A stretch of DNA of 64,000 bases from Dyella halodurans (lineage in GTDB: Bacteria > Pseudomonadota > Gammaproteobacteria > Xanthomonadales > Rhodanobacteraceae). The stretch covers positions 124,001-188,000 of the forward strand of contig NZ_JAPDPF010000007.1 in NCBI RefSeq assembly GCF_026283925.1, written 5' to 3'. Below, piece after piece: positions 17,907 to 40,943 of the stretch; position 1 is the first letter of the stretch; every line of letters starts with the position of its first letter. Position numbers and translations under genes: made by a program. The notes under the pieces were generated by a model, which saw only the letters and a list, made by a program, of their open reading frames with translations, ran no database searches and was not told where the DNA came from.

Positions 17907-17989
17907 AAGGTGATATTCCCCTTGTTGTTTCGATGGATTCTAAGACGCTGTCGTGGAGCTTCCAAGCGTGACCGTCAGGCCGCCTGGCC

Positions 17990-18262
17990 TAGGGATGCTC
18001 TGATCTATTCAATGAGGGTGTCACCGGTTCTGTCTGCCCGCAGATGTGTGCTGCGTCGGCGAAGGCAGGCTGGCTGCCTGTCGAGACGGCGCGGCGCGCA
18101 GCTGCGGGCAGACAGAACCGGCCCTTCGGGTGATGTCCAGAAAGCCCGCAGGCCGCGGTGCGCGGCTTGCCCAGGCAGCCAGCCTGCGCCGCGCCACGCC
18201 CCACACCCTGCGAACATTCTGGACATCATGCCACCCTCATTGAATAGATCAGAGCATCCCTA
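17990..18262. mobile_element. 273-bp TA-bounded palindromic element, copy 1
   Basis: The ends are 31-nt perfect inverted repeats (17990-18020 and 18232-18262), each beginning with TA. Inside are two further hairpins: 18024-18043 pairs with 18102-18121 (20 bp, perfect) and 18132-18142 pairs with 18217-18227 (11 bp, plus a degenerate extension). The loops carry GCAGGCTGGCTGCCTG (18065-18080) and its exact complement (18172-18187). There is no coding sequence. A copy about 94% identical, by eye, lies inverted at 40651-40923. Size, TA boundary and terminal repeats fit a non-autonomous MITE-like element mobilised by an IS630/Tc1-type transposase; that mechanism is inference. The right end supplies the acuI stop codon. 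Confidence 0.85.
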
Positions 18263-19253
18263 CGTGTACCAGAGTACGCCCAAAGGATTCGCCAGCGAGC
18301 ATGCGGCCGAAAACTTCCGGCAGTTGCTCGAGCGTGACCTCGCGCGTGGCGATGCGTTCAAGATGCTGCGGCTTCCAGTCGCTGGCCAGATGCGCCCAGA
18401 CGCGATCACGGATGTCACGTGCCGTACCGGCAGACGCAATGCCCAGCAGGCTGGCGCCGCGGATGATGAAGGGCATTACCGTACTTTCGAGTCCGATACC
18501 CCCGGCATTGCCGCAGATGGCGACGTTGCCGTAGGGGGCGATCAACGGCAGCAGGCCGGCCAGCATGCTGCCGCCCACGTTGTCCAGCGCGCCACCGAAG
18601 CGCACGGAATCCATTGGCTTGCCGCTGAAGGCGAGCTGGTGCCGGTCGATGCATTCGGCCGCACCCAGGTCACGCAGGAAATCGAAATGGGACGCCTTGC
18701 CGCTGATCGCGTGCACGGCGTAGCCGGCGCGGGTAAAGATGTCGATCGCCAGCATGCCCACGCCACCGGTGGCGCCGGTGACGGCGATCGGTCCCAGTGT
18801 CGGCGTCTGCTGGTTGTCCTGCATGCGCAGCAAGGCCAGCGCGGCCGTAAAGCCGGCTGTACCGATGATCATGCTGTCACGCAGGCTCAGGCCTTTCGGC
18901 AGCGGAATGGTCCAGGCCGAGGGCAGGCGAATGTACTCGGCGTAGCCGCCGTCGCGCGTTTCCGACAGACCGCTGCCGGTGCACAGCACGGCGTCGCCTT
19001 CCTTGAAAGCGGGATCGCTGGATGCGACCACGTGGCCGGCCACGTCGATGCCGCCATTGAGCGGGTATTGCCGAAGGATCTTGCCCTTGCCGGTGCCGGC
19101 TAGGGCGTCCTTGAAGTTGACCGAGGAGTACGCCACCTGGACCAGCACTTCGCCCGGCGAGAGCGCCGTGGCGCTGATTGTTTCGAGGCCGCCGCGGTAA
19201 CCCGCGTCGTCGTTGTGGATGCGGAAAGCGCGGAATGCGTTGGGTGTGCTCAT
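18249..19253 (-). CDS. acuI: Acrylyl-CoA reductase AcuI/YhdH family, zinc-independent MDR oxidoreductase
   Basis: A 334-residue medium-chain dehydrogenase/reductase. Family signatures are FKDALAGTGKGKILRQYP, GGIDVAGHV and the NADPH-binding VTGATGGVGMLAIDI; structural zinc ligands are absent. AcuI reduces acryloyl-CoA to propionyl-CoA with NADPH and protects against acrylate toxicity. ATG at 19253 is chosen (AGGA about 10 nt upstream). The last three residues (Gly-Met-Leu) and the stop are encoded by the terminal repeat of the adjoining element, so the native C-terminus may have been slightly altered. The LOG-family gene lies 31 bp upstream. Confidence 0.88.
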   Translation of the reverse strand: MSTPNAFRAFRIHNDDAGYRGGLETISATALSPGEVLVQVAYSSVNFKDALAGTGKGKILRQYPLNGGIDVAGHVVASSDPAFKEGDAVLCTGSGLSETRDGGYAEYIRLPSAWTIPLPKGLSLRDSMIIGTAGFTAALALLRMQDNQQTPTLGPIAVTGATGGVGMLAIDIFTRAGYAVHAISGKASHFDFLRDLGAAECIDRHQLAFSGKPMDSVRFGGALDNVGGSMLAGLLPLIAPYGNVAICGNAGGIGLESTVMPFIIRGASLLGIASAGTARDIRDRVWAHLASDWKPQHLERIATREVTLEQLPEVFGRMLAGESFGRTLVHVGML

Positions 19254-40650: not shown

Positions 40651-40923
40651 TAAGGGTGCTCTGATCTATTCAACGAGGGTGGCATGATGTCCAGAAAGGC
40701 CGCAGGGTGTGGGGCGTGGCGCCGCGCAGGCTGGCTGCCTGGGCAAGCCGCGCACCGCACCCTGCGGCCTTTCTGGACATCACCCGCAGGGCCGGTTCTG
40801 TCTGCCCGCAGCTGCGCGCCGCGCCGCCTCGACAGGCAGCCAGCCTGCCTTCGCCGACGCAGCACACATCTGCGGGCAGACAGAACCGGTGACACCCTCG
40901 TTGAATAGATCAGAGCACCCTTA
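40651..40923. mobile_element. 273-bp TA-bounded palindromic element, copy 2 (inverted relative to copy 1)
   Basis: Terminal 31-nt perfect inverted repeats lie at 40651-40681 and 40893-40923, each with TA outermost. The two internal hairpins are 40686-40709 with 40758-40781 (24 bp, perfect) and 40792-40811 with 40870-40889 (20 bp, perfect). The two loops hold GCAGGCTGGCTGCCTG (40726-40741) and its exact complement (40833-40848). Overall length equals copy 1. Its terminal arms differ from copy 1 at three positions, each matched by a complementary change in the opposite arm. It ends 20 bp before the fumC start. No coding content. Confidence 0.85.
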
Positions 40924-40943
40924 ACGCCAGGAATCGCAAGGAT

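What the first reader, a model, noticed from the sequence alone, without database searches (positions are those of the whole stretch)
17990..18262. Two-copy 273-bp palindromic element with fully covarying terminal arms
Copies at 17990-18262 and 40651-40923 have identical total length (TA to TA), opposite orientation and 31-bp terminal inverted repeats that are perfect within each copy. Between copies the arms differ at three positions (3, 6 and 24 from the outer T), and each change is matched by the complementary change in the other arm. Random drift would break pairing, so either the folded DNA/RNA is selected or each copy arose from a distinct perfectly paired parent. TA at both outer ends suggests a TA target duplication, as for IS630/Tc1-type elements. 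No transposase is encoded. It looks like a structured MITE not assigned to any family I know.
Basis: partly seen in the sequence, partly recalled or inferred. Interest (0 to 1): 0.85.

Follow-up and report, generated by a model that had tools for sequence, protein, structure and literature searches.

The report
Palindromic IS5-type miniature transposon family
Two copies of a 273-base palindromic DNA parasite sit between genes here; it makes no protein, appears to be moved by transposases of IS5-family insertion sequences, and belongs to a large family in soil bacteria whose paired arms keep changing in step.

Summary
Both 273-bp copies have perfect 31-bp terminal arms, and the whole element folds into a stem with two long side arms (z -17). 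The genome has 4 close copies; 187 copies were collected from relatives. It is a non-autonomous IS5-family-type MITE, not IS630/Tc1-type: flanks indicate a 4-bp CTAG/TTAA duplication (101 copies), and complete IS5-family elements, one on a Rhodanobacter plasmid, carry near-identical ends with exact 4-bp duplications. No IS630-type transposase was found in 25 genomes. The site of copy 1 is empty in 18 of 18 congeners. The same core wears three end types, each resembling ends of IS5-family elements. Mismatch types show no consistent strand preference, so the constraint looks DNA-level. Short copies lacking arms exist. Open: whether template switching or selection keeps the arms paired.

The parts
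17990..18262 (+). copy 1 of the palindromic MITE (TA to TA; 267-bp unit 17993-18259 between the 4-bp target copies)
17990..18020 (+). left terminal arm (31 bp), containing the IS5-type end GGATGCTCTGATC
18232..18262 (-). right terminal arm (31 bp)
17989..17992 (+). left target copy, CTAG
18260..18263 (+). right target copy, CTAC (3 of 4 bases repeat the left copy)
18024..18121 (+). side arm A (hairpin)
18122..18130 (+). tiny hairpin CCCTTCGGG between the arms
18131..18228 (+). side arm B (hairpin; its tip is close to the reverse complement of arm A's tip)
40651..40923 (-). copy 2 of the MITE, 94.5% identical to copy 1
40921..40924 (-). target copy of copy 2, TTAA
40650..40653 (-). target copy of copy 2, TTAG (3 of 4 bases repeat)

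Best explanation
The two copies belong to a family of non-autonomous mobile elements (MITEs) moved in trans by IS5-family DDE transposases. The transposase recognises the outer 13-20 bp at both ends and inserts the element at palindromic CTAG or TTAA sites (YTAR), duplicating 4 bp. CTAG and TTAA contain TAG or TAA, which fits the many insertions that abut gene 3' ends. Shown: ends shared with complete IS5-family elements, the 4-bp duplications family-wide, empty sites in related species, intergenic placement. Inferred: that these transposases actually move it. The palindromic interior (stem plus arms A and B) is a module found with three different end types. Its arms change in step at the DNA level; the likeliest cause is template switching between arms during replication, which rewrites one arm from the other, with selection for a foldable element possibly adding to it. 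That last step is inferred.
For: Class I ends: R. denitrificans plasmid NZ_CP088981.1 carries an IS5-family element (326-aa transposase; NF033581 350.6 bits, cut-off 140; PF01609 and PF05598) with ends GGATGCTCTGATCAAT / GGATGCTCTGATTTATTC and an exact TTAG duplication. Class II ends: an 822-bp IS5-family element in relative G021 has the left end AGGGCCTGTTAACACTA, identical 17 of 17 to both ends of copies L099 and L100; 42 of 374 copy ends examined lie within 3 mismatches of its ends, against 20 of 873,004 positions of the 8-kb loci, copies included. Class III ends: IS5-family elements of Polaromonas and Burkholderia (ISBmu23 family) with ends TTAAGGCAACGCTGAT / TTAAGGAAACGCTGAT and TTAA duplications (2 of 22 hits were viewed). 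Duplication: of 101 class I copies, TA lies at one exact offset in 69 left and 67 right flanks (0-5 at the four other offsets tried); 53 have both; in those, G-C type copies have C before (35 of 41) and G after (32 of 41), A-T type copies T before (8 of 12) and A after (11 of 12); 36 of 53 are exact 4-bp repeats. Empty site of copy 1: 18 of 18 congener loci lack the element, and 9 of 18 have exactly the 2 bases of one target TA between the flanks. 0 of 142 classified copies lie inside a predicted gene (12 more unclassified). Covariation.
Against: No DDE_Tnp_1 or DDE_Tnp_1_2 transposase was found in the own genome (PF01609, PF13586), so the helper is absent, lost or missed. 48 of 101 copies lack TA on one or both sides. 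The two window copies repeat only 3 of 4 target bases, and the terminal G-C/A-T pair stays complementary in 97 of 101 copies, as if it were part of the palindrome rather than of the target. In the other 9 of 18 empty sites of copy 1 the gap differs from 2 bases (-5 to 63). Solo ends without a partner exist and are unexplained.
Confidence: 0.86

Rival explanations
1. IS630/Tc1-mariner-type MITE with a TA duplication.
For: TA flanks both ends of both window copies and of 53 of 101 class I copies; empty sites with exactly one TA-sized gap fit TA as well as CTAG.
Against: Bases outside TA go with the type of the terminal pair as a 4-bp CTAG/TTAA duplication predicts; ends match IS5-family elements; no DDE_3 match in 5 genomes nor in 20 others, while 3 of 14 control genomes rang.
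Confidence: 0.03
2. A functional structured RNA (regulatory, or an RNase III or terminator site) carried on a mobile element, with arm pairing kept by selection on the transcript.
For: Very stable fold and strong covariation; copy 2 lies about 20 bp upstream of the start of a fumarate hydratase/aspartase-family gene; parts of the arm tips are conserved.
Against: On 68 pairs predicted on both strands, G.T and A.C mismatches are 58 and 60 in the terminal stem and 27 and 29 in arm B; arm A shows 37 and 14 at 90% filtering but 7 and 7 at 80%. No Rfam family at gathering score in 12 loci. No terminator-like site inside either copy (one outside copy 2, none). Gene orientation around copies is 81 tandem, 39 divergent, 22 convergent against a background of 196, 77, 65.
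Confidence: 0.12
3. The folded DNA itself (cruciform or single-strand hairpins) is selected because it helps transposition or replication, and compensatory changes are fixed by selection.
For: Pairing constraint without consistent strand preference; a T.C mismatch at the arm junction in 65 of 87 copies amid varying pairs, although 19 of 87 do pair there; blind arm correction should have removed such a mismatch.
Against: Copies of 61-151 bp that lack one or both side arms occur in several genomes, a 77-bp form at two sites of G057, so full arms do not seem required for movement.
Confidence: 0.35

Closest known systems
IS5-family insertion sequences (R. denitrificans plasmid IS; ISBmu23 family; 822-bp IS in G021)
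   Same: Terminal repeats and, for the four plasmid elements, an exact 4-bp YTAR target duplication
   Different: They encode a transposase and share only about 16-20 bp at the ends with the MITE
BrickBuilt and other IS5-type MITEs of Porphyromonas gingivalis (PMC4596501, passages seen)
   Same: Non-coding element with IS5-family terminal repeats; predicted stem loops
   Different: BrickBuilt has an internal minisatellite; no exchange of end types or arm-wide covariation in the passages seen
Correia/NEMIS and RUP (PMC2229807, passages seen)
   Same: Small MITEs with stable stem-loop transcripts and TA at the ends
   Different: Shorter (about 107-155 bp), stem loops by 5'-end/3'-end pairing without side arms; RUP is assigned there to IS630-Spn1
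CIR repeats of Caulobacter and Brucella (PMC2229807, passages seen)
   Same: Two long inverted-repeat arms joined by a linker
   Different: Listed there without terminal inverted repeats (with a footnote not seen)

Membership tests
IS5-family MITE | terminal inverted repeats matching an IS5-family element | tested here: met
   each of three end classes has an IS5-family counterpart
IS5-family MITE | target duplication of the same type (4-bp YTAR) | tested here: met
   36 of the 53 copies with TA on both sides are exact; 48 of 101 lack TA on a side; window copies 3 of 4 bases
IS5-family MITE | short, no transposase, several copies, empty sites | tested here: met
IS5-family MITE | moved in trans by the IS5-family transposase | not testable with these tools
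   needs a transposition assay
IS630/Tc1 MITE | TA-only duplication and an IS630 partner | tested here: not met
known Rfam RNA family | match at gathering score | tested here: not met
   0 matches in 12 loci; 8 hits for the window stretch, all below gathering score
REP/REPIN moved by RAYT | Y1 transposase partner | not tested

The most novel reading that the evidence does not exclude
A palindromic DNA chassis that persists across Rhodanobacteraceae and into Pseudoxanthomonas and Xanthomonas by changing its ends to use at least three different kinds of IS5-family transposase, while its two side arms are held in register at the DNA level for a role of their own (for example a protein-bound cruciform).
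Probability: 0.3. Interest if true: 0.7.

Novelty: new variant of a known kind. Interest (0 to 1): 0.47.

Why it matters
It gives a rare natural series (187 copies, three end types, several forms without arms) in which two explanations for compensatory change in inverted repeats, replication template switching and selection for folding, could be told apart, and it shows one non-autonomous core paired with ends of several helper transposases.

Tried and rejected
IS630 partner: no match. IS4/IS5 partner in the own genome: none. Of the PF01609 hits in G003 and G021, the two long ones were IS1182-family and IS4-family transposases without matching ends; L279 was the IS5-family element used here; L280 and L281 were stop-broken fragments and were not analysed further. 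Autonomous copy with class I ends: the inward-facing end pairs listed for 233 family genomes lie 61-382 bp apart by my reading of the table, none at 1-3 kb, but only the first places of a genome are listed. One inward pair 1.8 kb apart in G021 ends in an ordinary copy; its open frames were listed but not searched against families. Viral contigs: 0, 5 and 0 matches; the 5 had no near partner end except weak 6-mismatch ones in one. Element in plasmids or phages by distant blastn: none. A strand bias of G.T pairs in arm A and A.C in arm B (275/37 and 33/76) came largely from choosing pairs on one strand; with pairs found on both strands it shrank (37/14 and 27/29) and is not consistent at stricter filtering (7/7 and 5/12). 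Promoter scan: no site near copy 2, one on the minus strand outside copy 1, so a leader position of copy 2 rests on its place alone. Literature: 10 searches, judged by titles and starts of abstracts, listed no paper that describes this family; only the held open-licence library was searched. The gene calls come from a codon-usage script of my own, not from annotation. Class counts and copy counts are biased by the queries that fetched the loci.

Full report
Observation. Folding uses nearly every base: a 31-34 bp stem, side arm A, a tiny hairpin and side arm B, z -17.2 and -16.4 on the two strands. The element is also roughly symmetrical: it matches its own reverse complement at 71%.

Family. 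The own genome holds four close copies (90-100% identity) and several distant matches. 69 of 197 genomes searched, the own one included, have a match at E <= 0.001, many of them partial. A conserved-tip pattern found 106 stretches in named genomes; of the 80 rows listed nearly all are Dyella or Rhodanobacter, with 4 from Pseudoxanthomonas winnipegensis, 1 Xanthomonas, and MAGs labelled Lysobacterales, Rhodanobacteraceae (an isolate name) and Eremiobacteraeota. Contig lengths shared between searches suggest that the window's genus includes Dyella sp. AtDHG13 and D. silvae (inference). A profile search over the loci then held gave 187 distinct copies, 146 of them near full length; 3 of the 187 share an identical central half with another. 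The sample is biased by the queries that fetched it.

Covariation. On 87 copies under 90% identity to each other (of 128 aligned), 29 of 31 terminal pairs, 25 of 32 arm A pairs and 22 of 32 arm B pairs occur as two or more Watson-Crick types with at least 3 copies each; Watson-Crick fractions are 0.944, 0.842 and 0.949 against 0.651, 0.629 and 0.750 with shuffled partners. Shuffling does not keep relatedness. On 68 pairs predicted on both strands, mismatches are 58 G.T and 60 A.C in the terminal stem, 37 and 14 in arm A, 27 and 29 in arm B; at 80% filtering (24 copies) 14/18, 7/7 and 5/12. A transcript selected for pairing should favour G.U on one strand, so the constraint looks DNA-level. In 44 disjoint pairs of related copies there are 116 double Watson-Crick changes, 9 other doubles and 153 single changes, against 17.1 doubles expected if the arms changed independently; doubles/singles are 2/39 at identity >= 0.95, 40/73 at 0.90-0.95 and 74/41 at 0.85-0.90. 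So single changes are seen first and are later matched or removed, which fits selection as well as correction. Doubles lie next to another double in 22 of 116 cases against 12.8 at random placement, weak support for tract-wise copying. Template switching that repairs and creates stems is described in PMC8794818 (outline with abstract, and section 7) and arm homogenisation in PMC8604942 (abstract). A T.C mismatch at the arm junction stands in 65 of 87 copies, while 19 of 87 have a Watson-Crick pair there; this argues that correction alone is not the whole story.

Target site. In 101 class I copies TA lies at one exact offset in 69 left and 67 right flanks. In the 53 with both, copies ending in G-C mostly have CTAG flanks and copies ending in A-T mostly TTAA flanks (29 and 7 exact). 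The window copies repeat 3 of 4 bases. At the site of copy 1, all 18 congener loci held lack the element while both flanks match; in 9 of 18 exactly 2 bases, one target TA in size, lie between the flanks. In the closest relative G014 these 2 bases read AA, not TA. At the site of copy 2 none of 18 congener loci gives an element match; both flanks were found in 14, with 2-4 bases between them in 4, 22 in one, and 233-1277 bases of other sequence in 9, so that site is less clean. All 142 classified copies are intergenic by my gene calls (12 more unclassified), with a median distance of 4 bp to a predicted gene 3' end (125 such ends) and 50 bp to a start (159); neighbouring gene orientation resembles background.

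Helpers. Sorting the ends gave 69 class I (GATGCTCTGA), 31 class II (GGGCCTGTTC), 16 class III (GGCAACACTGA), 44 not matched by these expressions (on reading, mostly variants of I and II) and 26 without a clear repeat, 186 in all. Class I resembles IS5-family elements on a Rhodanobacter plasmid and, less closely, a Pseudomonas avellanae plasmid (2 of 5 hits viewed). Class II matches the 822-bp element of G021, whose boundaries recur in IS5-family records on plasmids. Class III resembles elements on Polaromonas and Burkholderia plasmids (2 of 22 hits viewed). The transposases pass NCBIfam IS5 cut-offs, except that of the two frames of the G021 element only the second does (134.6 against 110) and the first just misses (108.7). 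The four plasmid elements have exact 4-bp duplications TTAG, CTAG, TTAA, TTAA. The own genome has no PF01609 or PF13586 match, so its copies depend on a helper that is gone, was transient, or was missed.

Short forms. End pairs enclose elements of 46 to 382 bp; forms of 61, 77, 110, 117, 149 and 151 bp lack one or both side arms, and a 77-bp form with the same interior occurs at two sites of G057, differing at a few bases. A genome of another family of the order, G126, has other interiors between class I-like ends.

Judgement. An IS5-type MITE family, not described in the listings of 10 searches of the held library, unusual for its branched palindrome, the reuse of one core with three end types, and covariation through every arm. 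What moves it is inferred from ends and target; what keeps the arms paired is open between template switching and selection.

Noticed in passing
G000:C11:585288-585303 and G000:C18:36327-36342 (L201, L202): Solo class I ends TAGGGATGCTCTGATCC without a partner, each starting at a TAG that by eye reads as a gene's stop codon; the second recurs in the same context in G014 (L231). Remnants of lost copies or something else.
   Followed up: partly
L006, L375, L389: Extra hairpins of the type GAG..CATGGATG..CYCGGCTTTGAGGAGCGAGG inside a side arm, twice in L389: a second repeat module nested in the element.
   Followed up: no
L257-L266 (G126, another family of the order): 14 class I-like ends TAGGGAAGCTCTGATC, many followed by AATTCGAAT, around other interiors (spans up to about 513 bp), some near contig ends: a separate MITE group.
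   Followed up: partly
window 40924-40943: Copy 2 lies about 20 bp upstream of the start of a fumarate hydratase/aspartase-family gene, with purB diverging on its other side; it may lie in the leader of that gene, though the promoter scan found no site.
   Followed up: partly
L387 and L384: A form with a side arm replaced by another long hairpin (GGAGCGTAGGCTGGGATGGCAATCCCAGC).
   Followed up: no
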